Source: Termitomyces sp. T153 (Eukaryota > Basidiomycota > Agaricomycetes > Agaricales > Lyophyllaceae). Taken from it: a stretch of DNA of 64,000 bases. A model generated the notes under the pieces. The model was not told the origin of the DNA, did not search any database, and was given only the letters and a program-made list of their open reading frames with translations. Of the stretch, positions 9,428-64,000 are shown one piece after another. Made by a program: the position numbers and the translations under genes. The number at the start of each line of letters is the position of its first letter. Positions within the stretch are counted from its first letter, which is position 1. The stretch covers positions 372,001 to 436,000 of the forward strand of contig JACKQL020000034.1 in assembly GCA_018296165.2 (NCBI GenBank), written 5' to 3'.

Positions 9428-11275
9428 TTGCTAGGACTTGCTCAGAACATACCTTGCACTATTGGCAATGTAACAGTTTATCTCCAAATCCATTTTTACA
9501 GTCCCTCACCTACAACATTCTCCTTGGATGCCTCTTTGATGTTTTAACTCAAAGTGTGGTCAGCACCCTTAGCAACGTTGAGACCACCATCACCATCATG
9601 GACCCCAACACTGGCATGTGGTGCACTATTCCAACCTTTCCATGTGGTAAATCTAAAAGAAACAATTGCTAAAATGTTTGCTTTGAAACTGAAGCACCCC
9701 ACTGCTTTCATTGCCAAAGACATTGACAACAAAAATAGCAACACAGCGGTCATTATTAGCTATGATCATTCAACTGGTCTAGCAACTTGTATAGCTTCTT
9801 GTGATTTGGACAAAGACATTGTACTTACCAATTCTAACACACAGACAAACCCTGCCCTAACATATCTTTATGCTACTGCTAGACATGACTTAACAACATT
9901 CCAGACTCCTTTTGGTGCTCTTTGCTTAGTGACTTTGCCAATGGGTTGGACCAACTCTGTGCCAATATTCCACAACAACATAACCTTCATATTGCAGCCA
10001 GAGATTCCCCACAATGTCCTCAGCTTTATCAATGATGTTGGTGCTAAAGGACCCAAGGACTGGAAGATCATTAACAGTAATCCTGCTAAGCATCCCGCTA
10101 ATCCAAATATTTGCCTAGCTCTATGGGAGTTCTTTAAACTTCTCAACAGCATTCTCCAACAAATGAAGTATTGCAGCAGCACCTTCTCAGGTCACAAGCT
10201 AGTTTTATATGCTCTGACCTTCAAGATCCTTGGCCATGTTTGCACTCCTAGCAGTCAAATCCCTGATGAAAGTTGCTTAGCCCTGCTCAAGTGCTGGGGT
10301 CCTTGCAAGTTGCTATCAGAAGTCAGAGCCTTTTTGGGCACAGTTGGAGTTCTTAGGATTTTTGTTAAGAATTTTGCTTACCATGCCAACAATTTAACAA
10401 AACTTACTCATGTTGGCATCCCTTTCAAATTTGGCCCAGACCAGATCAATGCTCAGCAAGGCCTTGTCAAAGCTCTCAAAATGCTAAGCCCTTAGTTCCA
10501 ATTGACTATGAATTGCCTGACCCCATCATCTTAGTAGTAGACACTTCCTATATTGCTGTCAGTTACTACTACCTTTGCCAGTGCACTAGCAACAACCACA
10601 AAGAACACTGCTACAACCACTTTGGGTTGATTATGCTCAATGACAGAGAAGCCAGATTTAGTCAGCCCAAGTTGGAACTCTATAGCCTTTATTGAGCACT
10701 GCAAGCTTTGCAAATGTACCTTATTGGCATTAGGAACCTCATCGTTGAAGTCAATGCTCATTACATGAAGGGCATGCTTCAGAACCCTGACATCCAGCCT
10801 TCCACTAGCATGAACTGCTGGATCATGGCAATATTGATGTTCCACTTCAAGCTCATTCATGTCAAAGGAACTTTCCATGGCCCTGATGGTCTTTTTCAAT
10901 GTCTGCTTCAGCCTAGTGACCCCCCTCCTGATGATAGCAACAACTCTGTTTATGAAGACTAGATCAATTGCTTGCATGGATTCATTCACCAAGTCCAGCT
11001 GCCACTCCTTTACCAAGTCTCCTCAGCTTCCTGTTGACTACCCCCTCTGGTCAAGTTCCAGCCTCTACAGCCCTTAGCAACTTTTGTTAGTGACAATAGT
11101 AATGCCCCACAACTAGTGAACAGCAACAACATTCAGCCTCTCCATGATGATGGCACCACCACCTACAGCAACATACTCTGCAGTGCTAAAGCTATTGCTA
11201 GCAACACTTGCATACTTCTAGTTGAGAAGTGGCTTCACAACCTTGTCAGACCTGAAGGCCTTAGCAACAACAAGT
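9428..11275 (+). pseudogene. Family-1 protease tail, RT and RNase H (element A)
   Basis: The frame continues with LLGCLFDVLTQSVVSTLSN (end of the protease domain), then YDHSTGLATCIASCDLDKD, and then jumps at about 9885 from LYATA into HDLTTFQTPFGALCLVTLPM. Comparison with copy D shows that about 870 bp of RT (fingers and first catalytic Asp) are deleted at this point. The second catalytic block reads SFINDVGAKGPKDW, where the gypsy family has an FIDD-type motif, so one Asp is Asn. RNase H follows (VDTSYIAVSYYYLCQC, DREARFSQPKLELYSLY). The frame then runs to NNKYT, where a solo LTR interrupts it, and resumes at 13272. Confidence 0.82.
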
Positions 11276-11437
11276 ACACTAATAAGCTCCAGTTGTTGCT
11301 GAGCACCATTTTTGGCATTTTGGACTTAGCAGCAGCTGACTACTTTAAATTTGGCACAAGTCACAACATTCAGCACGCGGGGCCTAGCCCAAGGTCTGGA
11401 CCAAAGATGAGACTTTAGCAACCATGAGACTTATTGA

Positions 11438-12269
11438 TGTAGTACTGGGTTAGAGTAATACTGATAGTTCTGGGGCTTTCTTGAAGACTTAGGCAGTCTA
11501 CTCCAATTCCACACTGATGTCTTGATAAATGCTTGAAGTTGAAGGGGTTTACTTCCAAAATATTTCTATTCTGAATGCAGAAGGGTCTCAACAAACTCCA
11601 GCCTAAGTGATACACTCCCTGGGAACCACCGAGCCTTTGCCTATTAATTGCCTGTTCATTTGCTACTCTACTTGGGCTATTTATACCTCTTTCTACAGTG
11701 CACAGACCACCCCCTACATGTGACTTTTGGTTCCATACTTTCCAGCCCCTTATTCATAACTGTTATTCTAATTCCCCCTTTTGGCATGCCTGTTTCAGTG
11801 CCACAGGCCAGTTCCTGGTTCCATCATTCCTCCTTTGCATTCTTAGCTTCCATTTGCCCCATTTATCTCTCCCTCCTTTGTATTTCTTCCATTCATATTC
11901 TTCTCCATTCAGTTTCTTCCCTTCTTCTTCCTTTATTTATTTCATATTCTTCCCCATTCAGGTCCTTTCCCATTCAGGTTCTTCCATTCATCTGTCCCCT
12001 CCAATTCATTCCATTCATCTTCCTTTATTCATTTCATATTCTTCCCCTTTCAGGTTCTTTCCCATTCAGGTTCTTCCATTCATCTTCCTTTCCCTTCCCT
12101 TCATTCCATTCATTTCATATTCTTCCCCTTTCAGGTTCTTTCCCATTCAGGTTCTTCCATTCATCTTCCTTTCCCTTCCCTTCATTCCATTCATTTCATA
12201 TTCTTCCATTCATCTTCCTTTCCCTTCCCTTCATTCCATTCATTTCATTGGTGTGACAACATTGTATCA
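11438..12269. mobile_element. 832-bp insertion in the solo LTR, possibly another solo LTR
   Basis: The host LTR sequence breaks after ACTTATTGA and resumes as TTGATCACAAGGAA, so TTGA is duplicated (11434-11437 and 12270-12273). The insert begins TGTAGTACTGGG and ends GACAACATTGTATCA, giving TG...CA ends. A TATTTATACC sequence near 11682 is a possible TATA box. The right half is a pyrimidine-rich tandem repeat. No coding capacity is recognised. Size and termini suggest a solo LTR of a family with no other copy here. Confidence 0.6.
12024..12245. repeat. Pyrimidine-rich 81-bp minisatellite
   Basis: About two and a half copies of an 81-bp unit are present, each containing ATTTCATATTCTTCCCCTTT, CAGGTTCTTTCCCATTCAGG and TTCCATTCATCTTCCTTTCC. 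The last copy lacks the CAGGTTC part. One strand is nearly all C and T, which creates long open frames with no protein-like content. Confidence 0.85.
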
Positions 12270-13271
12270 TTGATCACAAGGAATATCATGTGGAGCCTAG
12301 AACTTGGGCCTAGATCATCAAGGCCTAGACCTTTCCTAGCAACAATTATTAGCAACCCTAGCGATTCTGGCAACAAAAAGGCGTTCTCTTATCATATACG
12401 GACATATTACCAGACACATACCTTTTTACTATCATTCCTCTTGTCAAATTTACCAACATACTTGAATGGCGTTTACACTTCAGGTATTGATATCGGACTC
12501 ACTCTTGTTTTGGATTTATTGTCAATTATACACCGTGGAGACTTTGCTTATAGTTTTCACCTGGTTACAGATTGACACCTTGTACAGACCATAAACACAT
12601 TGACAGACACCATCTCTAGTAGTGACTATCTGCTTACTTTCTCATACTATACTTTGGAATCATATAAATACTGCTTGTACATAGACACTTCATCATCAAA
12701 CAACCCATCCAACAGAGAACTAACTTGGATAGATCCCCTTGAGCTGTGCCATCTATCTCTAAGCTTACCAGCTTGAGATTTCACTTTGCTTCTCTCATTC
12801 CTCTATTGCTGTTGACATTGGCTTAGCAACAAGCCTCATCAACTTTGACCTTGACTTAGTGTGGTGCCATCTGTGGGTGCCTTTTGTGTTATTTCAACTT
12901 AGCGACATTAGCAACTGTGGCTAGCAACCATTTCATGTTTGTTCGTCCCTTGATTCAGTGTCTCCATTACCGTTTTCCAATTTCTACCCTATTCCCTAAC
13001 TCCACCACCACCATTAAGAGTTTGCTTTGTCATAGCAACACTTCTTACCTTCATCTATTCCACTACCTATTGCTAGTGACTTAGGCTAATAGTAGCGACC
13101 TTTTCAACTTCACCTTACAACACAACTTTTGCTCTCGTTCTCTGGGATGGTTACTGACTTGCCCTCAAACTATTAACTTCCTATTGCCAGCTACTCTATC
13201 TAGTAACTAGTGTTAGGTCCTCTTTTTAGGTTTCCTGCATGGCACTAGGTGGCATAGGAGCACATCAACAC

Positions 13272-14542
13272 CACCTTTGTTTGCTACACCTCAATGTTCT
13301 TTGTCACTGGAGGCAAACTTTGGTGGTGAAGTTGAGATGGTGCTCACAAGCTTTTTGTTCCTACTGCCAGTTGCTTACAAGTCTTAAAAGCCATGCATGA
13401 CAACTTGGGACATAGAAGCCTTTTTGCTACTCACTCAGCTCTCCTAGAATGATTCTCGTGGCCTCAAGTTAGTGCTGATATAGTGTGGTATATTCAGACT
13501 TGCCACCTCTGCCAAGTGCACCAGATGACTAAAGTTCTCATTCCGCCAACTGTTGCTATACCAGTGCCCTTGTTCAGCAAGATATACATTGACACTATGT
13601 TCATGCAACCCTCCAATAAGTTCAAGCATATCATTCAAGGACATTGTTTACTAACTCATTGCTCCAAGTTCTATGTGCTTGCTAGAGACAACACCAAAGC
13701 TATTGCCAAGTGGTTGTATGAAGATGTCATCTATTGCTGGGGCACCCTTAGCAAAATTGTTACTGACAATGGACTGCCAATTCTGAAAGCAGTATAACTT
13801 GCACCATATTTGGATCTCAGGTTACAACAAGCATGCTAACAGTATAGTTGAGCAACCTCATTTTAATGTTTGCCAAGCTCTCTTCAAAGTGGTTGACAGT
13901 GATCAGTCTAGGTGGAGTACAGCTACTTACTCTGTCTTTTGGTCAGAATGTGTTACAGTTTGCAAGCAAATGGGTTGCCCTCCTTACTATGTGACAACTG
14001 GTACCCATCCCCTGCTGCCTACCAACATAGTTGAAGCAATGTATCTGCAACCACTGCCAAACTTGTTCTTATTGACAACAGACCTTATAGCCTGCAGAGC
14101 AATTGATCTTCAATGTTGCCAAGAGGACCTTGACCACCTTTACAATAACGTCCTTAGCACTCATCACCAAGCCACTATTTGCTTCAAAGCAGAACATGCT
14201 GCTATGATTTGCAACCACAATTTCCAAGCTGGCAACCTTGTACTGATGAGAAACACTAGAATCAAAGTGATGCATAACAAGAAAATGAAGCCTTGCTACT
14301 TAGGCCTATTGGTGGTAATCTCTTGTAACTGTGGTGGCACTTACATTCTTTGTGAACTAGATGGTTCAGTACTGCATTGCCCCATAGCTACTTTTTGCTT
14401 GGTTCCTTATTTTGCTAGAGAACACATCTCAGTGCCTAGCAATGCTTCTGACATTGACACTTTGCAACTTTGTGAACTTGAGCAAACCAACCTTGTAGAT
14501 GATGACAATGTTGGCAACAATGCTAGTGAAGAAGAAAACTAA
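13272..14542 (+). pseudogene. Family-1 integrase (element A)
   Basis: The N-terminal zinc-binding HHCC domain is recognisable (HDNLGHRSLFATH..., then CHLCQVHQMTK). The catalytic core has the first Asp in YIDTMFMQPSN, the second in IVTDNGLPIL, and the Glu in SIVEQPHFNVCQALFKVVD. The C-terminal part (GNLVLMRNTRIK, YLGLLVVISCNCGGTYILCE, LVPYFAREHI) ends at a TAA in the same place as copies H and D. A stop at 13797 and the shift just after it break the frame, and TGA/TAG codons occur before 13480. The family catalyses insertion of the cDNA into host DNA with staggered cuts. The 4-bp duplications of this family fit that. Confidence 0.85.
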
Positions 14543-15056
14543 AACATACCCTTCACTAAGCCATAGTAATCTTTTGTAACTTTGCTTTTCATCTCACTAT
14601 AACCCTTTGCTAGTATTCAGAAAAACCATCAAAATACCTTGTATTAAGTCCTTTTGTTTTTGCTACTCTTTCCTCTTGTTACCATTGTTTAAAAGCCTTT
14701 CACAGACATCCTACTTTACTATTCTCTTGCTTTTGGTGCTGTGCTTTGCTATTTGTTGCTAGTGCTTGGCATGCCTCTGGAGGTTTTTTGCCATAATGAT
14801 TTACTGAGCGTTTTCCTCCATTGTCACTAGCATCAGGCAACAGCCACTAGTGCATACCAACTTATTTGTCTTGCTTATTTTTGCATTTTCTTGCTCTCAC
14901 TTATAGTTTTGGAATGCTTGACAGTACTATACATTTTGGGGACCCTTAAGGGGGCCAGTCTGCCATATACAAAAAGCTGTGAAGCCCCTTAAGGGGGCTA
15001 GTCTATGTCCATGCTACAAAGTCTAAAAAGTTATGTACACGAGAAAGCAATGGTCA
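14543..15056. other. Convergent 3' flank between integrase and passenger gene (A)
   Basis: There is no coding sequence. It holds the 3' ends of two convergent genes and the palindrome pair listed separately. The same layout recurs in copies D (59876-60372), H (47982-48494) and B (18705-19009). Confidence 0.7.
14938..14998. promoter_or_regulatory. Paired CCCTTAAGGG palindromes between convergent genes (A)
   Basis: GGGGACCCTTAAGGGGGCC (14938-14956) and GCCCCTTAAGGGGGC (14984-14998) are near-perfect palindromes about 30 bp apart, each next to CAGTCT or TAGTCT. The same pair lies at 60260-60318 in D and at 48038-48093 in H. B keeps one fused copy. A role in ending or processing the two convergent transcripts is inference. 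Confidence 0.5.
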
Positions 15057-15245
15057 CTAAGCATTGAGGTCAGCATTGTCATTGGGCACCTCCTCCAACT
15101 CCCCCTCCTCCCAGTCCTCCTTGCCCATGTTGTTCTCCTCCTGCCAGGCCAGGAAGGCCTGACAGTCACTATGGTACCCTGCCAGCATCCTCTTAGCAAC
15201 AGTGAAGCGTGCCCTTGCTGCTACCAACTCCTCTCTTGCCACCAC
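15057..15245 (-). pseudogene. Passenger gene of element A, last-exon part
   Basis: The minus-strand frame VAREELVAARARFTVAKRML, YHSDCQAFLAWQEENN and EEVPNDNADLNA is the C-terminal end of the antisense passenger protein. It ends at the TAG that corresponds to the stop of the B copy at 18704. The upstream part of the same exon (WRFQRELV) lies at 32484 and above. Element E separates the two with a 5-bp target duplication. See the entry for 16674-18704 for the full gene. Confidence 0.88.
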
Positions 15246-15394
15246 TGTAAGGGCAACCTCTGGAGCAGTGGGTTGGAGTCATGCAGCTAGCAGAAGGGAA
15301 TCCAAAGTATATTAGTGGAGTAGATGACAATACAATCAGTAACTAATCACCTAGCAGAGGGGAATCCAAAGAGAACAAGTCTAAGGATTCCTGC
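15246..15394 (-). repeat. 3' LTR of element E, first part
   Basis: It matches the family-2 LTR (compare 32117-32250) from TGTAAGGGCAACCTCTGGAG to AAGTCTAAGGATTCCTGC. Element B is inserted after CTGC. The LTR continues at 25891 after the duplicated CTGC. Confidence 0.9.
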
Positions 15395-16499
15395 TGATGT
15401 GCTCCTATGCTGCCTAGTGCCATGCAGGAAACCTAAAAAGAGGACCTAACACTAGTCACTAGATAGGGTAGCTGGCAGTAGGAAGTTAATAGTTGAGGGC
15501 AAGTCAGTAAACGTCCCAGAGAACTAGAGCAAAAGTTACGTTGTGGAGTGAAGTCGATAGGAGTCGCTATTGCTAGCAGAAGTCGCTAGTGACGATCAGG
15601 AAAGAAAAAGGGTAAAGACAAGTAACATTGCTAAGACAAAATGCCCTCCTAATGGAGGTAGTGGACAGTGAGGGAATAGGGTAGAGACAGGGAAAGGCAG
15701 TAACAGGAAGACTAAAATCAAGGGACAAACATAAACTGATTGCTAGCCATAATTGCTAGCGTTGCTAAGTCAGATTAATTAAAATAGGCACCTGCAGTTA
15801 GCACCACACTAAGTCAAGGTCGAAGTCAAGAAGGCTTATCACTAAGCTTGAGTCGAAGGCAATAAAAGAGTGAAGGAAGCAAAGTGAAATCTCTTGCTGG
15901 TAAGCTCCAAGATATCAGTTCTCTGATTGTTCTTTTTTTTTTTTTGGTGTCTATGTACAGTCAGTATTTATACATTTCAAAGTATAGTATGGGAAAGTAA
16001 ACAAATAGGCACCACTAGCAATGGCGTCTGTCACTGTGTTTAGGGTGCATATGAGGCGTCAGTCTGTAACTAAGTGAAAAATCATAGGCAAAGTCTTGGC
16101 AGCACCTAATTGCAAATGAAACCAAAAAGTAACAAGTCCAATGTCAATACCTGAAGCGTAGATGCTGTCCAAGTATGTTGGTAAGCTCGGCAAAAGAAAT
16201 GATAGTAAAAAGGTATGCGTCTGATAATTTTTTCATATATAGTAAGAGAACACCATTTTGTTGCTAGAGTCACTAGGGAGGGTCTAGGCCTTGATGATTT
16301 AGGCCCAAGTTCCAGACTCCACATGATGTTTCTCATGATCAGTAAGTCTTGTGGTCGCTAAAGTCTTGTGCTTTGCTCCAATCCTTGGGCTAAGTCTTGT
16401 GTGCTGAGTGTTGTGACTTGTGTCAGATTCAAGGTAGTCAGCTGCCACTAAGTCCGAAATGCCAAAAAAATGGTGCTCAGCAATAACTGGGGCTCATCA
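15395..16499 (-). repeat. 3' LTR of element B
   Basis: In + strand order it begins TGATGTGCTCCTATGC and ends AACTGGGGCTCATCA. The reversed TATA block CAGTATTTATAC lies near 15960. On its high-coordinate side it is followed by TCCTCCTCC, the reversed polypurine tract GGAGGAGGA. Confidence 0.95.
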
Positions 16500-16508
16500 T
16501 CCTCCTCC
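16500..16508 (-). other. Polypurine tract of element B
   Basis: On the minus strand GGAGGAGGA lies directly against the 3' LTR start TGATGAG. Element A has GGGGAGGA at 34523-34530 and element I has GGGGAAGA at 62515-62522 in the same place. This is the expected plus-strand primer of reverse transcription. Confidence 0.7.
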
Positions 16509-16673
16509 ATACTGAGATATTGACTGTCCTCAGTCAACCCCAAAGTCATGTGCTTGATTGCTTGGTCCATGCACCAGAGAGATTCGAATGAAAACGGCTG
16601 GTGGTCTCGCTTGAACTTCATCATCCCCACTTTCTTCTCATCTACTCTCCACTACAATCTTGATCTTATCGCT

Positions 16674-18704
16674 ATGTCTGATCTTGCCTCTCAATTCAAA
16701 AAGACTATGATGGCCCACGCCTTCCTGGAATGTGTCAACCAATTGCTCACCATGGCTCGTGCTTTCTTGGCGAAGGATCCTTGCTTGGCAGTCACTGCTA
16801 TCTTTCAGACATGGCTGCAGTGGTTCAAGACTGCAGGGAGTGGGGTTGAGTGGCCGGAGTTGGCAACTGTCGAGAGGGAGTGTCGCCAACTATACAAGCA
16901 GTACAAGGGGGAGGAATGGGTTTGCCCATTTGACGTCCACTTTGTAAGTCTCTTCTTTTCTTCTCTTAGCGACATTCCTAACGCAATTGCTAGGTGCCGG
17001 TTGATTCCTCCTTGGAGTTCCTAATGGATGACCTTACAGCGGGAATGACGGTAAGTGCCCTGGCAGTTGCTAGCGCTAGCGACACTGCTAAGGTATGCCA
17101 GCTTTTTGAAGACTTGTCGCCAAATGACCAGTTCTTCTTCCAGCACCTGGTAGGTGCATTAGCAGTGGCAAGGGGGGAGGGATGGAGCGAGGGTTGCGGG
17201 GGTGAGGAGGCGGCAAATTGTGGGGACATTCAAGAGGCAGGCCTCTCGACTCCCAAGGCAGCGGCTGGCAGCGTTGCTAGGGGGTTGGCGACATCACCAT
17301 GATTGGCAACAACCCCAAGGAGCAAAGGGAAGGGGAAGGCAAAGGCACAAGACAAGGAGGACAAGGATATTGAGGTGAGTTTTCTTCTTTTCTTTTTTGC
17401 CAACTCTTGGCAATGGTTGCTAACTGCTCTTGCAGGAACAAATTGAAGAAATGTTTACTGACAAGCACTTGGCAACCCTTCTTTGTTGGCAAAAGGCCTC
17501 GACGGTGGTGGACACCGGCCTGGGAGCTGGGGTGAAGTTGGAGAAGGCAAAAGGAAAGGTAATGGTGTCGCTAGAGAAGTGACAAGAGTATAAGTGCATG
17601 CAAGGAGCGGTAAGCACTTAGCAATTGTTTCTTTCTTTGTCACTAACAATTTCTTCTAGTGCAACAACTGCTGGGCCAATAATGACCCAGAGGGCTGCTG
17701 GTACCCCACGGGGGTCCAGCCCTGTTATCGTTGCGACAGCACAAGGAAAAGCTGCTCACACAGCAGATGGTCGTCGAGGAGTACTGGCAGCAAGTTTGCT
17801 AAGAAGATAGCGATGAAGGCGGCGTTGGTAAGGAATGTGAGGGCTTTCATGGAGCAACAGCAGGAATTATTGAGAAGAGGGGAGCTCCTCAGGATCAAGC
17901 CTTCTAGCTTGAGCTTGCCGACATTGCAGGAGGAGGTGACAAGTGGGAGTAGTGGGGGTGCTAAGGCAAAGAGTAAGGAGTGGGTGGAGAGCGATGAGGA
18001 CGGTGGCAACGACGGCGGTGACAATGACAACGACAACAAAGTGCCTCTGGCACAAAAACAAGCAGCAAGTCCTGTGTCAGTCGCTAGCACTAAGCGGCCC
18101 TGAACAGTCACTAGCGAGGAGAGAGAGGGGGACATGGAGATGAGGGAGACAACTCCCTTAGCGACGGTCGCTGAGGTGGAATGGGAGGTGAGTGACATGG
18201 AGGTCAAGGGTGAGGAAGAGTTTGAGGCCGCCCCAGCTGCCATTGAGGAGGATGAAGAGGAGGAAAGGGCTGAGGAGGTCAAAGTCTGACAACGGGTAAG
18301 TTCTTTCCTTTTGCTATCTTCTTGATTGCTAACCGCTTTGCTAGGGGACCTGGAGCAACATGCCCTTGTGCCAGGTTGGCAATGACAAGCTGGAGTGGTT
18401 GGGCAAGGATCTGGGTTGGCCAATGCTGCTAACGTCAGTGGCATCACTAGTGGATTTTGACGAGAGAGTGGCAGGAGTGGAACGGCGGTTCCAGAGGGAG
18501 CTGGAGGCTGCTCGGGAAGAGTTGTTAGCAGCGCAGGCCCATTACACTGTTGCCAAGCAAATGTTGGTGACTCTGGCGGGATATCGGCATGACTGTCAGG
18601 CCTTCCTGGCCTGGCAGGAGGAGAACAACATCAGGGAAGGAGACTGGGAGGAGGTGGAGGATCCTGTGGAGGTGCCTGACAATGACGCTGACCTTGACTC
18701 TTAG
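16674..18704 (+). pseudogene. Antisense passenger gene of family 1, multi-exon, cysteine-cluster protein (element B)
   Basis: The gene runs opposite to gag-pol. Exon 1 starts at MSDLASQF (16674) and encodes a helical domain (AVTAIFQTWLQWFKTAGSGV, WPELATVERECRQLYKQYKG). Introns with GT...AG ends are visible at about 16944-16993, 17051-17092, just after 17370, 17609-17660 and just after 18295. Exon 5 opens with a six-cysteine cluster (C-x2-C-x8-C-x8-C-x2-C-x6-C, from CNNCW to KSC), resembling a Zn2Cys6 DNA-binding cluster with one longer loop, followed by basic and coiled-coil sequence and a Glu/Asp-rich region. The last exon is helical (RFQRELEAAREELLAAQA, QAFLAWQEENN). Four in-frame TGA codons (near 17300, 17579, 18102 and 18287) replace what are probably CGA Arg codons, so this copy is dead or marginal. 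Function unknown. Copies: 34357-32484 plus 15245-15057, 61361-60373, 47862-47981 and 62685-64000. Confidence 0.85.
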
Positions 18705-19009
18705 CACCAGTTGCCTCCTGTATATAATTTTTTTTAGTTTTCATAGTATGGACACAGACTAGCCCCCTTAAGGGGCCCCAAAATGTTTAATACTTGGCAA
18801 TGATTCAGAGTCTGAGAGAAACCAAACAAAACAAAAGCAAGATCAATGGGGTATTATGCACTGGTGACTGTCACCTAACGCTCTAGAGGCATGCCAAGCA
18901 CTGGCGACAGAATGGCCAAGCACAGCATCAAAACAAGAAACTAGTAAAGTAGATTGTTGATGGGTTTTTCTGGATAATACAGATAGGAACAATAAGAAAC
19001 GAGGCAGAG
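18705..19009. other. Convergent 3' flank with one CCCTTAAGGG palindrome (B)
   Basis: There is no coding sequence. GCCCCCTTAAGGGGCCCC at 18762-18779 sits next to CAGACTA and CAAAATG. It looks like the left half of one family palindrome fused to the right half of the other, so the spacer between the pair has been deleted in B. Confidence 0.5.
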
Positions 19010-22000
19010 TCAAGATAAGTTGCCAAGGCTTAGCAAAAGGTAGCTTTCTTCTTCACTAGTTATGTCGCCAGTATTGTTGTCGTTGACAAGTTCAGTTTGC
19101 TCCATTTCTCTGAGTTGAGAGGTGTTGATGTCGAAAGCGTTGCTAGGCACTATTATGTGTTCTCTAGTGAAATAGGGAACTAAACAAAAGGCGGCAATGG
19201 GACAATGCAGTATGGAGCCATCTAGTTCACAAATAATGTAAGCACCTCCACAGTTGCGAGAGATTACCACTAAGGGGCCTAGGTAACAAGGATTCATCTT
19301 CTTGTTATGCGTTACCTCAATTCTAGTATTCCTCATCAGTATAAGGTCACCTGCTTTGAAGTTGTAATCGCAGATTGTAGTGGCATATTCTGTTTTGAAG
19401 CGAATGGCTGCTAGGAGATGAGCGCTAAGAACGTGACTGTGAAGGCGGTCGAGATCCTCTTGGCAGCGTTGAAGATCAATTGCTCGGTGGGCTATGAGGT
19501 CTGTTGTCGACAATAGCAAGTTTGGTGGCAGTTGCAAATATGTTGCTTCTACTATGTCAGCTGGCAAGAGAGGGTGGGTACCAGTTGTTGCGAAGTAAGG
19601 GGAGCAACCCATTCGCTCGCAAATGGTAACCTGTTCTAACCAAAATACAGAGTAAGTAGCAGTACTCCACCTGGACTGATCACCATCAACCGCTTTGAAG
19701 AGGGCTTGGCAAACATCGAAATGGGGCCACTCAACTATTCCATTAGCATGCTTATTGTAACCAGAGGTTCAGATGTGGTGCAAGTTATACTTCTTCGCCA
19801 AGTAGGTAACTGCCTTTAGGATGGGAGGTCCATTGTCAGTAACAATTTCACCAAGCGCTCCCCAACAACAGATGACATCCTTGTATAGCCACCTAGCAAT
19901 AGCTTCTGTGTTCTCTCTGGCAAGCATACAAAACTTGGGGTAATGAGTTAGCAAACAACATCCTTGAATGATATATTTGAACTTATTGGAGGGAGGCATG
20001 AACATGGTGTCCACATATATCTTGCTGAACAAGGGTGCTGGCATAGCAACAGTTGGCGGGATGAGAACTTTGGTTGTCTGGTGTATTTGGCAGAGGTGGC
20101 AAGTCCGAAGGTACCATACTATATCAGTGCTAACTTGAGGCCACCAAAATTGTTCTAAAAGGGCTGAGCAAGTAGCAAAAAGTCCTCTATGACCCAAGTT
20201 GTCATGCGTGGCTTTCAAGACCCATAAGCGGCTAGCAATAGGCACAAACAGCTTATGAGTGCCATCTTGACTTCTTTGCCAAAGTTTGCCTCCAGTAGCG
20301 AAGAACATAGAGGCATAGCAAACAAAAGTGGCATAGTCTTTGTCGCTAAGGCCCTTGGGTCTGACAAGATTGTGAAGCCATTTTTCAACTAGAAGTATGC
20401 GAGTGTCGCTGGCGATAGCTTTGGCACTGCAAGGTACATTGCTATAAGTAGTGGTGCCATCATCTTAGAGAGGCTGAATATTGTTGCTGGTCGCTAACCA
20501 AGGGGCAGTGCCAGTGTCACTGGCAAAAGTTGCTAAAGGATGCAAATAATCATACTCAGCCAGAGGAGGTAGGCAATGAGAAGCCATGGAAACTTGGCGA
20601 AGTAGCGGCAGTGGTAGCTGAACTTGGTGAATGAACCCATGTAAGCGATCTATCCAATCCTCATAAACGGAGTTGTTGCTATTGTCAGCTGGAGGGTCAC
20701 CAGGCTGTGGCGGGCATTGCAAAAGACCATTGGGGCCATGGAAAGTTCCTTTGATGTGGACCAGCTCAAAGTGAAACATCAAAATTGCCATAATCCAGCT
20801 GTTCATGCTAGCGGAAGGCTGGATGTCAGGGTTCTGAACCATACCCTTAATGTAGTGAGCATCGACTTCGATGATAAGGTTCCTAACACCAATGAGGTAC
20901 ATCTGTAAAGCTTGTAGCGCTCAATAAAGGCCATAGAGTTCCAACTTGGGCTGACTGAATCTGGCTTCTCTGTCGTTTAGCATAATCAATCCAAAGTGGT
21001 TGTAGCGGCATTCCTTGCGATTGTCACTAGTGCACTGGCAAAGGTAATATCCAACCACTATGTACAAGGTGTCCACTGCTAGGATGACAGGGTCAGGTGA
21101 TTCATAGTTGATAGGAACTAGGGGCTTAGCGTCTTGTAAGACTTTCAAGAGGTCACGTTGAGCATTTATCTGGTCAGGGCCAAACTCAAAGGGGATGCCA
21201 ATGCGAGTAAGTTTTGTTAGGTTGTTGGCTCGATGGGCAAAGTTCTTGACAAAAATCCTAAGTACCACAACTGTGCCCAAAAAGGCTTGGACTTCCGATA
21301 GCGACTTACAAGGGCCCCACTGCTCAATTAGGGCTAAGCGACTCTTGTCAGGGATTCATCTGCCAGGAGTGCACACATGACCTAGAATCTTGAAAGTCAG
21401 GGCACAAAGAACAAGTTTGTGACCAGAAAAAGTGCCACCACAATATTTCATTTGCTGGAGAACCCTGTTGAGAAGCTCAAAGAACTCCCATAGTGCTAGG
21501 CAAATGTTTGGATTAGTGGGATGCTTAGCGGGTTTACCGTTAACAATCTTCCAGTCCTTGGGTCCTTTAGCGCCAACGGTGGTGGATTTGGATTGAGCTG
21601 AGGGATTGTCGCTAGGGGATTGCCAATAATCTGGCGCTTGATTTGGAAATCCTTGCTAACGTGGCTGGCAACTGGTTTGGTTTTCATGGCAACAGGTTTG
21701 TACTTCTTCTTTACTTGGACTCCTCTTTGCTTAGGGGGTTCGTTAGCAACAAACTGAACAGGGAATGGAATGTTAACGTAGGTGGGGGTAGTGTCTGTAA
21801 CGTGTGTATCAAGTGGTAAAGTCTGTCCAAGAATCAAGGGATGAGATGTATCAGCAGAAACCAGATAAGAACGAGGTGGAAGGGACAAATCAGATATGTC
21901 GCTAGCCATAGCGTAAAGGTATGCTAGCGCAGGATTAGTCTGTGTGTCAGAATTAGTAAGTAAAATGTTGTTGTCCAAATCACAAGAAGCTAGACAAGTC

Positions 22001-22357
22001 ACTAGACCAGTTGAATGGTCATAGCTGATAACAATTGCTATGTCACTATCTTCTTCATCCCTGCCTTTGGCAATGAAAGCAACAGGGTGCTTCTGTTTCG
22101 AAGCGAACATTTTGGTGGTTGTTCCTTTTGGATTTGCCACGAGGAAAGGTAGGGATAGTGCGCTGTTGGCCAGTATTGGGATCCGTGATTGTTATAGTAG
22201 TTTCAACGTTGCTAAGTGTGTTGATCGTACTTTGAGTTAATACATCAAAGGGGCGTCCAAGTAGAATGTCATAGGCAGGAGACCATAAAACATAGATTTG
22301 GAGATAAACCATAATGTTGCCAATAGTACATGGTATGTTTTGAGCAAGTCCTAGCTA
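19010..22357 (-). pseudogene. Family-1 pol with RT centre deleted: RT C-terminal part, RNase H, integrase (element B)
   Basis: Read from 22357 downwards: the protease end (SPAYDILLGRPFDVLTQSTI), a region with YDHSTGLVTCLASCDLDNN and KPVASHVSKDFQIKRQIIG, then at about 21580 a jump from QLNPNPPP into KDWKIVNGKPAKHPTNPN. The RT fingers and the catalytic FIDD-type block are therefore deleted, by a different event from that in element A. After this come the RT connection and RNase H (VKNFAHRANNLTKL, VDTLYIVVGYYLCQCT, REARFSQPKLELYGLY), and the integrase with HHCC zinc domain (HDNLGHRGLFATCSALLEQF, CHLCQIHQTTK), core residues in YVDTMFMPPSN and IVTDNGPPIL, and the C-terminal YLGPLVVISRNCGGAYIICE. 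The frame runs past the usual stop to SLGNLS. Confidence 0.85.
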
Positions 22358-24718
22358 TCAGTCCATGGTGCCATTAGCACTCTGCATGTTTAAAACTATG
22401 TTGGGATTGTAGGGTAGTTCAAGGTCACTGGCAATTTCTGCTGACATTGAAATAATCTGAGAACCACTGTTGTGAATGCATTCCACTTCCTCTTTGTTGT
22501 CGATCAGCATCATGATGGTATGAAGTGACTGAGAATCCTTAGCAACAGTGAGCACCACAGGCTCTTCTCCATAGGGTAGCAAATCGATGTAGGCTTTGAT
22601 GGGGTCAACAGATGCAAAAGGTGCCTTATCTGAGGTAAGTCCGTTAGCAGTATTGACATTGGATCCTAGTGAAAACTGGGGTTCTTCAATAGCAAAAGTT
22701 GGCAATATATCTTCAAAAATGTTGCTAGGGTCTTGTACCATATTAGCGCTAGCGCCTACTAGTTGTTTGGGCATAACCGCTGTTCTAAACTGATTCCAGA
22801 TGTCCTGTGATACTGAGCAAAGTTTGCCAACCAATACTGTAACCTTGGTGCTTAAAACCCATTTGAAAACTGCCTTGGACTGCTCAATGTTGTAAATGGG
22901 TGGCATAGTTCGATATGCACTGTTGTTAGTTTGGTCAGGAGCAGTGAAATTCCTGTTAGCGGGGGGTACATAGTGACCAGGGATGCTGGAAAATGAATGA
23001 ATGGGAGGCTAAGTGACAGGTTCCTTAGCAATGGGTGGTTGTTCATTAACAACGGTATGTTCAGATGCTTTGCCTTTGTCGGTGGGCTTAGCGGCAGGAG
23101 CTGGAGTCAAATCGGAAGAGGATGAAGTCACTGAGGTGTCACTAGTCAGGGGTGTTGCCTTTGGGGTATCGTTTGCTGGTCAATAAGCCACGCAGGGGAC
23201 TTGTACACTATCAAACTTTTTGCCAGGTTGCCTGAGTGCAAAGAGTTCACGTTCCAAAGCCTCGATCTGTTCTTCCTTGCTTAGCACTCGGCCCATAGCG
23301 ACATCCTGTTGCATTACTTTGTGGATTAGTGACTGCTGCATAGCCGCTTGCTCAGGATCCGGGTTAGCATTGGAAGAGAGTCTGCCAGTAATGATTTGTC
23401 CTGGGTTAAGCCTGTGCCATTCCTTGATGCGTTCCATGTATAGTTGCTTGCTGAAATAATTAGGGATCATAGTGCCTGATGGTAAAATGACCTTTCCTTT
23501 GGCATTCTGATGGACCTTACCCTGTTGAATCATTTGCTCCAGTTTCATACACGTGCCTTGGACCATGGTGTGACCAATTTCACCACACAAGTGACAAGTG
23601 CTGTTAGCAAACTGTTGACAAGGTTGGGTGTTACTGTTGGTCAAAAGAGCTTCCAAATGTTCCAAGGTGCTGACTATAGCTGTGGTGGTTGTTAATTCCA
23701 AAGTTTCTCACTTAAGCGTAGGCAAAAGAGCAGCTGGTGCATTAGTGATTGGCAATGACAAAGGAATACCACTGATGCCATTGCTGGTCTTGGTTGTAGA
23801 GGTGTCTGTTCCCTTTAAAACCCATTTGGCACCCTCGAAAACTTGGTCAACATTGTAAGGGTCCTCAGGATGGTGGTCAGGAAGAGTGATTTCGAGGCAA
23901 CAAACAATTTTGGACCATAGCGACGTAGGGATACCTTGTTGGAACAAGTGACATTCCTCATTACAATAGAGTCTACTGTTAGCAAGTAACCATTGGGCAA
24001 TATGTTGGAAATCCCTGTAGTAATCAGAGAACCTTCCCAAAGTTGCTAAGCTGCTGTTGAAAGTTTGGTTGACCAGTCATTCCAAGTTGCCAAGGTTATA
24101 ACAAGCGCTAGCATCAGTGCCAGGGTACAGCCTAAGCACTGCCGATTTCCATTCCTGGTAAGTATATGGTTGGGGAGCATTGTTGCCGATATTGTCACCA
24201 AATTCAGGTAAGCCAAGCCAGGTTTCTGCTGTGTTGTAAGAGACGTATTGTGACGCATATTCCTTCTTCTGGGTGTCGTCAGTGATGCCGCAGTCAGCAA
24301 AGAGGTATTCTAGTTCCTTGAAGTATTGGGGGAGTTCCCTAGGGCGACTCTCATCCCATTTAGACGCAGTTGTGTTGTTGCATGGTGGCATTCTAGCACG
24401 CTGAGCGGTGGGGTCATTGTTCATATTAGCGATTGTTGGGTTTAGCGAAGGAAGGGGGTGAGTTGGTGATGAAGGGATAGATTGTGTGTCTGGGAAAAAG
24501 ATAGAGTTGGTTGGGGTCAAAGGTGAAAGTGGTGCATCAAGGAAACTTTCGATAAAGGCGCCTGGAAAATCAGCAAGGATTTTGCTAATGTCACAAAGGT
24601 TTTTAGCAGTTTCGAGTTCGTCGGCAAGAGGTCAAGGACAGGCTGCTGGCAAAGAGTGCTGAGGGGTCAAAAATGAATGTGGAGGTGATTTGACAAGGTT
24701 TTTCAGGTGATGTTTCAT
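22358..24718 (-). pseudogene. Family-1 gag and protease (element B)
   Basis: This is the best preserved Gag-Pro of family 1. The start ATG at 24718 (MKHHLKNLVKSPPHSFL) is the first in frame after the primer-binding site. Gag contains ETAKNLCDISKILADFPGAF, SKWDESRPRELPQYFKELEY and an atypical knuckle CHLCGEIGHTMVQGTC (C-x2-C-x4-H-x6-C). A Pro/Ser-rich linker follows, then the protease with VECIHNSGSQIISM. The catalytic Asp of the protease is Asn here, consistent with CG-to-CA decay of CACGAC. A few TGA/TAG/TAA codons interrupt the frame (near 24076, 23707, 23178 and 23010). The TGA at the end, after NGTMD, is in the same place as in A and D. Confidence 0.85.
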
Positions 24719-24778
24719 TTGAGCTCTGGTTTCTGGCAAAATGGTTAACTTCAAAGGCCCTCATGGTGCGCTCCAAAA
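24719..24778 (-). other. Leader and primer-binding site of element B
   Basis: On the minus strand, TTT and then TGGAGCGCACCATGAGG follow the 5' LTR end ACATCA. This is a tRNA-primer site in standard position, which contrasts with the self-priming signature of family 2. Confidence 0.45.
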
Positions 24779-25886
24779 TGATGTGCTCCTATGCCACCTA
24801 GTGCTGTGCAGGAAACCTAAAAAGAGGACCTAACACTAGTCACTAGATAGGGTAGCTAGCAGTAGGAAGTTAATAGTTGGGAGCGAGTTAGTAACCATCC
24901 CAGAGAACTAGAGCAAAAGTTACATTGTGGAGTGAAGTCGATAGGAGTCGCTATTGCTAGCAGAAGTCGCTAGTGACGATCAGGAAAGAAAAAGGGTAAA
25001 GACAAGTAACATTGCTAAGACAAAACGCCCTCCTAATGGAGGTAGTGGAGAGTGAGGGAATAGGGTAGAGACAGGGAAAGGCAGTAACAGGAAGACTAAA
25101 ATCAAGGGACAAACATAAACTGATTGCTAGCCATAGTTGCTAGCGTTGCTAAGTCAGATTAATTAAAATAGGCACCTGCAGTTGGCACCACACTAAGTCA
25201 AGGTCGACGTCAAGAAGGCTTATTGCTAAGCTTGAGTCAAAGGCAATAAAAGAGGAAAGGAAGCAAAGTGAAATCTCTTGCTGGTAAGCTCCAAGATATC
25301 AGTTCTCTGATTGTTCTTTTTTTTTTTTTTTTGGTGTCTATGTACAGTCAGTATTTATACATTTCAAAGTATAGTATGGGAAAGTAAACAAATAGGCACC
25401 ACTAGCAATGGCGTCTGTCACTGTGTTTAGAGTGCATACAAGGCGTCAGTCTGTAACTAAGTGAAAAATCATAGGCAAAGTCTTGGCAGCACCTAATTGC
25501 AAATGAAACCAAAAAGTAACAAGTCCAATGTCAATACCTGAAGCGTAGATGCTGTCCAAGTATGTTGGTAAGCTCGGCAAAAGAAATGATAGTAAAAAGG
25601 TATGCGTCTGATAATTTTTTCATATATAGTAAGAGAACACCATTTTGTTGCTAGAGTCACTAGGGAGGGTCTAGGCCTTGATGATTTAGGCCCAAGTTCC
25701 AGACTCCACATGATGTTTCTCATGATCAGTAAGTCTTGTGGTCGCTAAAGTCTTGTGCTTTGCTCCAATCCTTGGGCTAAGTCTTGTGTGCTGAGTGTTG
25801 TGACTTGTGTCAGATTCAAGGTAGTCAGCTGCCACTAAGTCCGAAATGCCAAAAAAATGGTGCTCAGCAATAACTGGGGCTCATCA
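24779..25886 (-). repeat. 5' LTR of element B
   Basis: It runs from TGATGTGCTCCTATGCC to GGGGCTCATCA. The promoter block on the minus strand is TATAAATACTGACTGTACAT near 25364-25345. I counted six exact GTYGCTA words in this 1.1-kb LTR. Confidence 0.95.
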
Positions 25887-25890
25887 CTGC

Positions 25891-26090
25891 TGCTCAGCAC
25901 AGTGCATCAATGGGCATCAGAAGCATGGGAACTACTGCACAGGTGACTGGAGCTACTCCTAACCCTAGGGCTATTGTTGCTGAGGTAATACAGAGAACTC
26001 TGTGGTCCTGGAAAGACCCACAGAGATGTCAAACAAGCTGCAGAGGTGCTAGAACCAGTCATGGAGGTTGGAAATGGAAGTCTTCTGACA
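25891..26090 (-). repeat. 3' LTR of element E, second part
   Basis: It continues the family-2 LTR from TGCTCAGCACAGTGCATC to GAAGTCTTCTGACA, where the minus strand LTR starts (TGTCAG). Next to it the minus strand has AGAGGGGGAGTGA, the polypurine tract also seen at the F 3' LTR (41448-41460). Confidence 0.88.
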
Positions 26091-26101
26091 TCACTCCCCC
26101 T

Positions 26102-60372: not shown

Positions 60373-61361
60373 CTAGGCATTGAGGTCAGCATCATCATCA
60401 GGCAGCTCCCCCAACTCCCCCTTTTCAAATCCTCCTCTCTAACATTGTTCTCCTCCTGCCAGGCCAAGAAAACCTGACAGTTGCTGTGGTACCCTGCTAG
60501 AGTTGCCAGTATCCTCTTAGCAACAGTGAACCATGCCCTTGCTGCCACCAACTCCTCCTTTGCCACCTCCAGCTCCCTCTGAAACCTCTGCTTCACTCCA
60601 GAAGCCCTCTTGTTGAAGTCCAATAACAATGCCACTGGCATTAGTGGTGTTGGCCAAGCTAGGTCCTTGCCCAGCCACTCCAATTTGTTGTTCCCAACCC
60701 ATCACAGTGGTGTGCTGCTCTAGGTTTCCTAGCAAGACTGTTAGCAAACAATTAATTAGCAAAAGAAGCCACTTTCCTGTTGTCAGACTTTCTCCTTGTT
60801 CTTGCCCTTGTCCTCATCTTCCTCCTCAGTTGTGTCTACTGCCCCAGCCTCAAACTCCTCCTCACCCTTGACCTCCATATTGCTAGCCACTTACTCCACC
60901 TCAGCAACCTTCACCAAGGGAGTTGTCTCCCTCATCTTCACATTCTCCACCTCCTTCTCCCCCTTCTTGCTAGCAACAGTCCATGGTCACTTAGCACTAG
61001 CAACTGGCATCAAACTTGCTGCTTGTTTGCATGCCAAAGGCATGTTGTCATCACCATCATTGCTATTGCCATTGCCTTCCCTGTTGCTATGCTTGTCCTT
61101 GCTCTGCACAACCTCCTTACTCTTCTCCTGTCACCTACCCTTAGTGACTCCACTGCCTCCAACTGTTGCCCCATCCTGCAATGTAGGCAAGTTCAAGCTG
61201 GAATGCTTGACTTGTATGGGCTCTCCCTTCCTTGCCAACTCCCTCTGTTGCTCCACAAATGCCCGCACATTCTGTACCAACGCCACTCTTACCACTATCC
61301 TCCTGATGAACTTTCCACCAGTGGCCCTCAATGACTTACCACTATACCTTTCCTTGAATGG
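60373..61361 (-). pseudogene. Passenger gene, 3' half (D)
   Basis: From 61361 downwards on the minus strand, the exon-5 segment after the cysteine cluster (LRATGGKFIRRIVVRVALVQ, NVRAFVEQQRELARKGEPIQ, KHSSLNLPTLQDGATVGGSG) is followed by an acidic region. The last exon then has WEQQIGVAGQGPSLANTTNA-like sequence and RFQRELEVAKEELVAARAWF, GYHSNCQVFLAWQEENN, ending at the TAG 60375-60373. The TGA before the last intron is shared with A and B. The 5' half, including the cysteines, was cut off by element I and is not in the window. Confidence 0.85.
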
Positions 61362-62684: not shown

Positions 62685-64000
62685 ATGTCATCTGAACTTG
62701 CCTCTCAACTTAAGAAGATCACAATGGCCCATGCTTTCCTTGATCAGGTTGACTGCCTGCTTTCTATAGCCTGTGCATTGTTGGCAAAGGATCCTCACTT
62801 GGCAGTCACTGCCATATTCCAAACTTGGCTGCAATGGTTCAAGACTGCAGGAAGTGGGGTTGAGTGGCCAGAGTTGGTGACTGTTGAGAAGGAGTGTCAC
62901 CAGCTCTATGAGCAGTACAAGGGGGAAGGGTGGGTTTGACCTTTTGACGTACACTTCATAAGTTCTTTGTTTTCTCTCTCTTAGCAACAATTCTAATGAG
63001 TTTGCTAGGCTCCAGTCAATCCCTTGTTGAAGTTTTTGATAGATGATCTGATGGTAGGAATGACAGTAAGTGCCCTGGCAGTCACTAGTGGTAGCGACAC
63101 TGCTAAGGTAATGTTAGCTTTTTGAAGACTTGTTGCTGGATGACCAATTCTTCTTCTAGCACCCACTAGGTGTGTTAGTGGTGGCGAGGGGCAAGGAGTG
63201 GAGTAAGGACCATGGGAGTGAGGAGAGGGCAAATTGTGGGGACATTATGGAGGCCAGCTCCTCAACTCCCAAGGCTGCAGCTGGCAGTGTTGCTAAGGGG
63301 TTGGCAACATTGCCAAGAGTGGTGACAACTTCAAGGAGCAAAGGAAAGGGTAAGGGTAAGGGTAAGCTCAAGAAGAAGACAAAGAAGATACCAAAGTAAG
63401 TCTTCACATTTTTGCCAGCTCTTAGCAACACTTGCTAATTTTCTCCAGGAACAAATGGAAGAAATATTTTCTGACATGCACTTGGCAACTTTGCTTTGTT
63501 GGCAAAAGGCCTTGATGGTGGTGGATACTGGGCTGGAAGCCAGCATAGTATTGAAGAAGGCAAAAGAGAAAGTGACAGTGTTGCTAGAGAAGCAACAGGA
63601 GTTCAGGTGCACATAAGGACCAGTAAGTGCTTAGCATCTGTTGCTTCTATAGTCGCTAACAACTTCTTAATGTGACAACTGTTTGGCTGATAATGACCCA
63701 GAAGGCTGCTGGTACCCAACAGGGGCCCAGCCTTGTTACCATTGCAACAGTACTAGGAAGAGCTGCTCATACAGTGGAAGATCATCAAGGAGTACAGGTG
63801 GCAAGTTTGCCAAGAAGATAGCAGTGAAGGCAGCATCAGTATGGAATGCAAGGGCTTTTGTGGAAAGGCAGTGGGAGTTGGCAAAGAAGGGAGTGCCCAT
63901 TGAGGTCAAGCACTTGAGCTTGAACCTACCAACTTCACAGAAGGGAGTGATGGCTGGAGGGAGTGGAGTTGCCAAGGGTAAGAGCAAGGAAGTGGTGGAG
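62685..64000 (+). pseudogene. Passenger gene of element I (runs off the window)
   Basis: It starts MSSELASQLKKITMAHAFLD and keeps AVTAIFQTWLQWFKTAGSGV nearly identical to B, evidence that the protein has been under constraint during spread. The six-cysteine cluster at about 63672-63770 (CDNCLADNDPEGC, CYHCNSTRKSC) has the same spacing. It continues with SKFAKKIAVKAASVWNARAF and ELAKKGVPIEVKHLSLNLP to the window edge. The copy is broken: a TGA in GWV-stop-PFDVHF, the first intron donor GTAAGT is ATAAGT, and the acceptor before the cysteine exon is altered. At the place where B has TGA after SLEK, this copy has CAA. Both derive from CGA by CpG decay on opposite strands. Confidence 0.85.

What the first reader, a model, noticed from the sequence alone, without database searches (positions are those of the whole stretch)
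16674..18704. Family-1 gypsy elements carry an antisense, intron-containing passenger gene
In all five preserved places (A, B, D, H and I) the same gene lies between integrase and 3' LTR and points against gag-pol. Its GT-AG introns are at shared positions. Introns of a sense gene would be removed when the element copies itself through RNA. An antisense gene keeps them because its introns are not read as introns in the genomic transcript. Similar residues and intron sites over several copies show that it moves as part of the element and is not captured afresh each time. Its start codon is only ~175 bp from the 3' LTR, so that LTR region may act as a promoter in both directions. Plant Tat-lineage elements such as Grande are known to carry an antisense extra gene in the same position. 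I know of no described fungal case.
Basis: partly seen in the sequence, partly recalled or inferred. Interest (0 to 1): 0.85.

Follow-up and report, generated by a model that had tools for sequence, protein, structure and literature searches.

The report
Antisense, intron-bearing gene inside mushroom retrotransposons
A jumping DNA element in a termite-farmed mushroom carries an extra gene written backwards on its other strand, with its introns kept when the element copies itself, and the gene is under selection, so it probably helps the element.

Summary
The gene at 16674-18704 lies between pol and the 3' LTR of a Ty3/gypsy-type element with two LTRs and a target duplication, reads against gag-pol, and has six predicted exons and five introns. 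The host is Termitomyces, very close to strain J132. In the genome, 104 of 148 copies of the leader dyad are followed by the gene's start codon. 34 of the 40 best integrase matches carry the gene, one of them internally deleted.

The copies read in full from B's group are dead. Two young subfamilies carry open spliced frames in 12 of 12 fetched copies, with all five GT-AG introns. Seven of these are 99.3-100% identical with unrelated flanks on the LTR side, so recent retrotransposition kept the introns. dN/dS between the subfamilies is 0.145.

The protein matches no family searched. It has a helical N-terminus, a conserved six-cysteine motif, an acidic stretch and a long C-terminal helix. I infer a nuclear regulator acting for the element; expression and function are untested. 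New variant of a known kind.

The parts
15395..16499 (-). 3' LTR of element B (TGATGAGCCCC...GGAGCACATCA on the - strand)
   Evidence: 97.5% identical to 24779-25886
24779..25886 (-). 5' LTR of element B
15391..15394 (.). target-site duplication CTGC, left side
   Evidence: 4-bp duplications also at young copies L052/L063 (CCGT) and L053/L064 (ACTT), none at L056/L065
25887..25890 (.). target-site duplication CTGC, right side
24759..24775 (-). primer-binding-site-like TGG..., 3 nt inside the 5' LTR
   Evidence: read; three young copies show TTT|TGGAGCCCACC at the same place; tRNA not identified
16500..16508 (-). polypurine tract GGAGGAGGA directly beside the 3' LTR
   Evidence: sequence; purine-rich in Y, X, B, D, I alignment
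16520..16537 (.). dyad TTGACTG-TCCT-CAGTCAA in the gene's leader
   Evidence: present in 20 of 20 L009-L028 (18 exact, 2 with one mismatch), 12 of 12 young copies, B and D; I lacks part. TTGACTGNNNNCAGTCAACC: 148 exact in the genome, 0 for the reversed control
16587..16593 (+). TATA-like box (AATGAAA here; AATAAAA in most older copies, AGTAAAA in Y, AATAACA in X), 85-92 bp before the ATG
   Evidence: in 27 of 27 leaders that the script matched, out of 35 given; a loose set of words chosen after looking, so weak evidence
16674..16943 (+). passenger exon 1 (start ATG)
   Evidence: dN/dS 0.05 over residues 1-115 between young subfamilies
16944..16993 (+). intron 1
   Evidence: GT-AG in 11 of 21, AT-AG in 10 of 21 of the B group; GT-AG in 12 of 12 young copies
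16994..17050 (+). exon 2
17051..17101 (+). intron 2 as preferred (51 nt; 52 nt in D and I); alternative 17093-17143
17102..17374 (+). exon 3
   Evidence: start aligns to T32_za158 proteins; motif L[FW][ET][DE]L[SLF]P in 18 of 42 members of A3
17375..17435 (+). intron 3
17436..17609 (+). exon 4
17610..17659 (+). intron 4
17660..18295 (+). exon 5, with six-cysteine motif and acidic stretch
17660..17755 (+). six-cysteine motif C-x2-C-x8-C-x8-C-x2-C-x6-C
   Evidence: all six cysteines in 28 of 32 members of A3 without gaps there, of 42 members
18296..18344 (+). intron 5
18345..18704 (+). exon 6, long C-terminal helix, stop TAG
   Evidence: helix 496-556 of P0003, pLDDT 85-92 over 501-560
18763..18775 (.). 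CCCCCTTAAGGGG palindrome between the two convergent stop codons
   Evidence: present (up to 2 mismatches) in all 20 L009-L028 and all 12 young copies
19010..20464 (-). integrase part of pol, ending 19010
   Evidence: ORFs; Integrase_H2C2 E 4e-15, SH3_Tf2-1 below cut-off, E 0.054
20465..24631 (-). rest of gag-pol of B, broken; about 670 nt present in H, where the reverse-transcriptase core should lie, are missing
   Evidence: a young copy, L066, has a pol frame of at least 1254 aa
32483..34354 (-). passenger copy D, with LTR 34531-35662, integrase side missing
62688..64000 (+). passenger copy I (continues past the window)
60383..61340 (-). passenger copy H, second half
15067..15233 (-). passenger remnant A (last about 60 codons)

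Best explanation
It is an accessory gene of a Ty3/gypsy-type LTR retrotransposon lineage of Termitomyces. It lies tail-to-tail with pol, on the strand opposite the genomic RNA. Shown by sequence: it belongs to the element, its five predicted introns survive retrotransposition, it has stayed coding under purifying selection, and it is open in recently inserted copies. Inferred: the introns survive because in the genomic RNA they appear as reverse complements and are not spliced. The gene is transcribed from a promoter in or next to the 172-174 bp between polypurine tract and ATG, spliced, and translated into a nuclear protein of about 580 residues. That protein dimerises through its C-terminal helix, binds nucleic acid with its six-cysteine motif, and regulates the element in trans (its transcription or its silencing). 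Probability of the structural part about 0.95; of a trans-acting nuclear regulator about 0.4.
For: Multicopy: 40 loci scored out of 270 candidates, 81-100% identity; 104 of 148 leader dyads followed by the start codon, 0 in the reversed controls. Linkage: leader, gene and integrase end side by side in 20 of 20 fetched older copies, LTR in 19 of 20; 34 of the 40 best integrase hits; Mantel r 0.80 and 0.79. Recent mobility with introns: 7 Y copies 99.3-100% identical up to the LTR edge, LTR-side flanks unrelated in 21 of 21 pairs, LTR pairs of three of them 99.0, 99.3 and 99.9%, 5 of 5 introns GT-AG and an open spliced frame in 12 of 12 Y and X copies. Selection: Y-X dN/dS 0.145, N-terminal part 0.05, 206-330 with the motif 0.096, C-terminal part 0.088; transversions concentrate at third positions in all 14 pairs tested, OR 2.05-4.1 (7, 7). 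Across the genus: 160 proteins in 3 searches, all Termitomyces (strains J132, T112, Mn162, T32_za158, T159_Od127), down to 27% identity. Regulator reading: six cysteines in 28 of 32, C-terminal helix, invariant dyad.
Against: No RNA data of any kind; intron 2 has two workable readings. No Pfam, NCBIfam or PDB sequence match above cut-off for the protein; the model is poor (mean pLDDT 50), so DNA binding and dimerisation are readings of sequence. 5 of the 40 integrase hits run into the LTR with the gene deleted, at 4 different junctions; two copies share one junction, so that form seems to have moved: the gene is not needed in cis. The dyad remains in all five, so it may serve the element in cis and not the gene. 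The LTR next to the leader is almost as conserved as the leader. Constraint on the gene is weaker than on pol (OR about 2-4 against 5-8). The copies read in the window are dead. The searches for copies are capped.
Confidence: 0.62

Rival explanations
1. Only the antisense RNA matters: it pairs with the genomic RNA and feeds RNA silencing or tunes copy number, and the protein is incidental.
For: In Blumeria hordei, antisense transcripts of Ty3-type elements exist, and introns were verified in two of the cloned noncoding RNAs, at least one of them antisense to a Ty3-type element (PMC10648671, passages). The review of plant antisense ORFs raises the same option (PMC7264820, passages).
Against: Reading frame open in 12 of 12 young copies, dN/dS 0.145, third-position bias in 14 of 14 pairs, protein similarity down to 27% with the six cysteines mostly kept.
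Confidence: 0.12
2. The protein is not a regulator but a structural or targeting helper: a nucleic-acid-binding partner of particles or pre-integration complexes, or a tether that chooses the insertion site.
For: Cysteine motif and basic segments could bind RNA or DNA; no chromodomain was matched in pol (at E 0.1, at E 0.01), only a sub-threshold Tf2-1-like SH3 match.
Against: No match to gag or capsid families in Pfam; a long acidic, fast-evolving stretch (dN/dS 0.255) fits a regulator better; gene-less copies seem able to move, perhaps helped in trans.
Confidence: 0.25
3. A host gene family into which the elements inserted, or a gene captured recently and repeatedly.
For: Introns are usual for host genes; the ultimate origin is probably a cellular gene.
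Against: Same position, orientation, leader and introns in each copy read; congruent distances with integrase and LTR; identity of young copies stops at the LTR edge; homologues over the genus, their genomic context unread.
Confidence: 0.02
4. Neutral cargo: the gene is kept only because whole elements are copied and it does nothing for element or host.
For: Weaker constraint than pol; independent deletions.
Against: dN/dS 0.145 and 12 of 12 open frames are not expected of cargo without function; deletions are the minority among the best integrase hits (5 of 40).
Confidence: 0.05

Closest known systems
Boty / BcGypsy1 elements of Botrytis cinerea and Sclerotinia with antisense gene brtn (Zhao et al. 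2011, not held; known here through passages of PMC7264820 and PMC8365987)
   Same: Fungal gypsy-type LTR retrotransposon, extra gene between pol and 3' LTR, antisense to gag-pol.
   Different: Ascomycete host; Boty-like pol has a chromodomain (PMC4227169, passage), none was matched here. I could not obtain the BRTN sequence, so relatedness of the proteins and introns in brtn are untested.
Plant Tat-lineage elements: Grande gene23, RIRE2, Retand with TRP28 (PF04195)
   Different: No TRP28 match here; the word intron does not occur in the main text of PMC7264820 or PMC11963269 (counts 0).
HTLV-1 HBZ and related antisense retroviral genes
   Same: Antisense gene at the 3' end of a retroelement; nuclear protein (PMC11963269 passage); antisense promoter inside the 3' LTR of HTLV (PMC7264820 passage). 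That HBZ mRNA is spliced is recalled.
   Different: HBZ is a bZIP protein (recalled); no such match here, and the likely promoter lies at least partly outside the LTR.
Intron-containing antisense transcripts of Blumeria hordei transposons
   Same: Fungal, antisense to transposons including Ty3-type elements, introns verified for two cloned RNAs (PMC10648671, passages).
   Different: Classed as noncoding; here a conserved reading frame.
Tcn1-like fungal gypsy elements with an additional ORF of unknown function
   Same: Fungal gypsy element with an extra ORF (PMC2864245, figure-legend passage).
   Different: Orientation and position not seen in the passage; 'antisense' and 'opposite' do not occur in that text; chromodomain elements.

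Membership tests
LTR retrotransposon, Ty3/gypsy type | two LTRs with TG...CA ends, target duplication, primer site and polypurine tract | tested here: met
   4-bp duplication in 3 of 4 elements whose two outer edges were read
LTR retrotransposon, Ty3/gypsy type | pol order protease - RT/RNase H - integrase | tested here: met
   L066: protease, then RNase H, then H2C2 integrase in order; the RT core was read by eye (FIDDV), no Pfam RT match at E 0.01
Element with antisense extra gene (Boty/Grande kind) | ORF between pol and 3' LTR, opposite strand, in most copies | tested here: met
   34 of the 40 best integrase hits; 104 of 148 dyads
Boty/brtn | protein homologous to BRTN | not testable with these tools
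   sequence not held; no Botrytis protein among hits, whose reach is limited
Retand/TRP28 | PF04195 domain | tested here: not met
   Pfam scans
Fungal Zn2Cys6 regulators | match to the zinc cluster family and spacing C-x2-C-x6-C-x5-12-C-x2-C-x6-8-C (spacing recalled) | tested here: not met
   no such Pfam match listed up to E 10; second spacing is 8, not 6; six cysteines conserved
DUF3716 (PF12511) | score above the family cut-off | tested here: not met
   best E 0.12, 2 of 14 members; 10.8 bits against cut-off 22 for P0006
Protein-coding gene | purifying selection on the spliced frame | tested here: met
Protein-coding gene | spliced transcript observed | not testable with these tools
   no RNA data

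The most novel reading that the evidence does not exclude
The gene encodes a retrotransposon-borne, dimeric, zinc-cluster-like DNA-binding protein of a new family. It recognises the dyad TTGACTG-N4-CAGTCAA that 34 of the 35 leaders read hold (at most one mismatch) between polypurine tract and gene, and works in trans as a regulator or anti-silencing factor for the whole family, including copies that have lost the gene but kept the dyad: a fungal counterpart of retroviral antisense regulators that arose independently.
Probability: 0.2. Interest if true: 0.82.

Novelty: new variant of a known kind. Interest (0 to 1): 0.62.

Why it matters
Antisense accessory genes of LTR retrotransposons are known from plants and from Boty in ascomycetes, but their roles are unknown. 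Here is a basidiomycete case with five introns, a separate leader with an invariant dyad, open recent copies beside natural deletion derivatives, and measurable selection. It makes the role of such genes testable: one genome supplies open, decayed and deleted versions. It also suggests that many of the 160 Termitomyces 'hypothetical proteins' found here are transposon genes, not host genes.

Tried and rejected
Intron 2 took three attempts. 17051-17092: rejected, an extra base in D and I would break the frame. 17093-17143 (and 11 of the 14 public models in A1; P0015 keeps both stretches, P0032 and P0056 agree with me): workable, open in the young copies I looked at (L052, L060), AG in 35 of 35. 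I prefer 17051-17101 for its donor (GTAAGT in 34 of 35, AG in 35 of 35) and for exon 3's match to distant homologues. Both may be used; the conclusions do not depend on it.

Host-gene origin: no search reached a relative outside Termitomyces. The three protein searches scored 7992, 7993 and 7997 word-sharing candidates, so this is no proof of absence.

Structure: mean pLDDT 50; I made no fold search because a poor model gives meaningless matches. PDB by sequence: nothing for the profile; one hit at E 0.81 for the cysteine piece, taken as chance.

Replaced by transversion counts of Y pol against B, H and A.

5' LTRs sought at six older copies: three gave partial pairs (L018 95.6%, L015 96.1%, both cut by the end of the fetched stretch; L011 95.5% over 247 nt), three had none where expected (L021, L014, L027). 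In the Mantel tests I used 18 (integrase) and 17 (LTR) of 21 copies; L010, L013, L020 were dropped for incomplete integrase pieces and L016 for lacking an LTR hit. Integrase against LTR gave r 0.84, p 0.02.

Introns change less by transversion than third positions in Y-B (6 of 257 against 43 of 581, p 0.004), and likewise in Y-L013 and Y-L028, but about equally in Y-X; I have no explanation.

Full report
WHERE IT IS. The window is part of contig C34 of a 72.4-Mb, 307-contig genome. A public gene model of Termitomyces sp. J132 (P0062) matches window 9674-17299 in pieces at 98.5-100% identity (and one piece at 83%, counted across an intron gap), so the organism is Termitomyces J132 or very close (Agaricales, Lyophyllaceae).

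OBSERVATION. Element B runs from 15395 to 25886 with LTRs 97.5% identical and a 4-bp target duplication. Gag-pol reads on the - strand and pol ends at 19010. The gene reads on the + strand from 16674 to 18704, tail-to-tail with pol. Leader 174 bp, polypurine tract beside the LTR. The model has six exons and five introns of 49-61 nt; intron 2 has a second workable reading. B is dead: four stops in the gene, and about 670 nt missing where reverse transcriptase should lie.

NOT A ONE-OFF. With the gene as query, 40 loci were scored from 270 candidates, 81-100% identical. With integrase as query, so without choosing for the gene, 34 of the 40 best hits (of 253 candidates) carry it: 24 by coordinates and 10 of 16 by fetched DNA, one of these internally deleted. 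Five run into the LTR with the gene deleted, at four different junctions (L069 and L070 share one); one (L029) shows neither gene nor LTR. All five keep the dyad and polypurine tract, from which I infer that the gene is ancestral and was lost several times. A pattern of dyad plus start codon occurs 104 times; the dyad with its CC 148 times; reversed controls 0. The other 44 were not sorted into decayed starts and deletions.

IT TRAVELS WITH ITS INTRONS. In 21 older copies (B and L009-L028) all introns sit at the same places; 94 of 105 are GT-AG and 11 have an AT donor. These copies carry a heavy CpG-type decay: CpG observed/expected 0.40-0.66 in the three tested against 1.1 in two young ones, and LTR pairs differ mostly by transitions (37 to 0, 27 to 1, 21 to 4, 9 to 2). 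The protein search of the genome uncovered young subfamilies. I fetched seven Y and five X copies. Y copies are 99.3-100% identical over 3.7-3.8 kb of LTR, leader, gene and spacer; X copies 97.9-99.7%. Flanks outside the LTR share nothing: 0 of 21 Y pairs and 0 of 10 X pairs, so they are separate insertions and not assembly duplicates. LTR pairs of three Y copies are 99.0, 99.3 and 99.9% identical; two of these three have a 4-bp target duplication. In 12 of 12 the spliced frame is open (582 or 581 residues) and 5 of 5 introns are GT-AG. A sense gene would not be expected to do this: an RNA intermediate would tend to lose its introns. That the antisense position is the reason is inference from established retrotransposon biology.

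IT IS CODING. Y against X: dS 0.40, dN 0.058, ratio 0.145; 0.05 in the N-terminal part, 0.096 around the cysteine motif, 0.088 in the C-terminal part, 0.235 in the linker, 0.255 in the acidic stretch. Since CpG decay distorts such ratios in older copies, I used transversions there. Third positions exceed first plus second by OR 2.15-2.9 in B-D, B-I, B-H, D-I, D-H and 2.5-4.1 in L013-D, L028-I (p 0.004 to 5.6e-8), and by OR 2.5-3.8 in Y against B, H, D, I, L013, L028 and 2.05 (p 0.016) in Y-X. These pairs are not independent. Pol shows OR 5.2-7.8 in four comparisons: the gene is constrained, less than pol. Distances of gene and integrase (18 copies) and gene and LTR (17 copies) correlate, r 0.80 and 0.79, p 1e-4.

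RELATIVES. Three searches of 5.8 billion proteins gave 62, 105 and 58 hits, together P0001-P0160, all in Termitomyces: J132, T112, Mn162, T32_za158, T159_Od127, named hypothetical proteins, down to 27% identity. Their genomic context could not be read. No Pfam, NCBIfam or PDB family above cut-off.

PROTEIN. Residues 1-115 are predicted helical (pLDDT mostly 52-86), 496-556 form a long helix (85-92 over 501-560), and the middle is without confident structure. A motif C-x2-C-x8-C-x8-C-x2-C-x6-C keeps all six cysteines in 28 of the 32 members of A3 without gaps there (42 in all). Lysine-rich and acidic stretches lie on either side. The layout recalls fungal zinc-cluster regulators (from memory), but the family test is negative.

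LEADER. The 172-174 bp between polypurine tract and ATG is as conserved between Y and X (87.2%) as the gene (87.5%) and more than the whole LTR (79.0%); the 300 bp of LTR next to it reach 85.6% and the far 300 bp 73.0%, so the conserved block includes part of the LTR. The leader holds the dyad TTGACTG-TCCT-CAGTCAA (20 of 20 older copies, two with one mismatch; 12 of 12 young; B and D; partly lost in I) and a TATA-like word 85-92 bp before the ATG in 27 of 27 leaders that the script matched, out of 35 given; the words were chosen after looking. Between the two stop codons a CCCCTTAAGGGG palindrome recurs in all 32 copies scanned, up to two mismatches.

MECHANISM. Shown: element gene, antisense, introns kept, selection, recent open copies, losses tolerated. 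Inferred: expression from the leader, splicing, nuclear regulator in trans. Rivals: helper of particle or integration, antisense RNA effect, neutral cargo.

LITERATURE. PMC7264820 (abstract and passages) reports antisense ORFs in plants and Boty with brtn in fungi; PMC8365987, PMC4227169 and PMC5987419 (passages) mention brtn; PMC11963269 (abstract and passages) Retand; PMC10648671 (passages) antisense, partly intron-containing noncoding RNAs in Blumeria; PMC5408684 and PMC2864245 (passages) extra ORFs, none called antisense in what I saw. Zhao 2011 was not held. In ten full-text searches I saw no basidiomycete or Termitomyces case in the listings; the library lacks most subscription journals, and most listed papers were not opened.

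VERDICT. Real, element-borne, coding, mobile with introns; a new variant of a known kind.

Noticed in passing
G000: Two young subfamilies, one of at least seven near-identical insertions with open gene frames (and an open pol frame in the one interior read, L066), suggest the family moved very recently in this Termitomyces.
   Followed up: yes
   Followed up: partly
window 35716-36085, 41461-41811: A different element with LTR-like repeats of about 370 bp; related stretches at 25883-31188 and 42254-44762. I did not look for an extra gene in it.
   Followed up: no
L030/L067, L031/L068, L033/L069, L037/L070, L038/L071: Gene-less elements with four different deletion junctions among five copies; all five keep the polypurine tract and dyad.
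   Followed up: yes
L009-L028 and window copies: Strong CpG-type decay: LTR pairs differ mostly by transitions, splice donor GT of intron 1 becomes AT in 10 of 21 copies; points to methylation of these elements.
   Followed up: partly
P0013, P0062: These public Termitomyces gene models are chimaeras of this gene with other transposon parts; other copies are annotated as hypothetical proteins, and 11 of 14 models in A1 read intron 2 otherwise than I do.
   Followed up: partly
window 11884-12248: Degenerate tandem array of pyrimidine-rich units (TTCCCATTCAGGTTCTTCCATTCAT-like), read by eye and.
   Followed up: no
window-wide: Words such as GCTAGCGAC / TTAGCAAC recur in LTRs, genes and introns alike; not quantified.
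   Followed up: no
L056/L065: A young copy with LTRs 99.9% identical but no target duplication at the edges read; perhaps recombination between copies.
   Followed up: no
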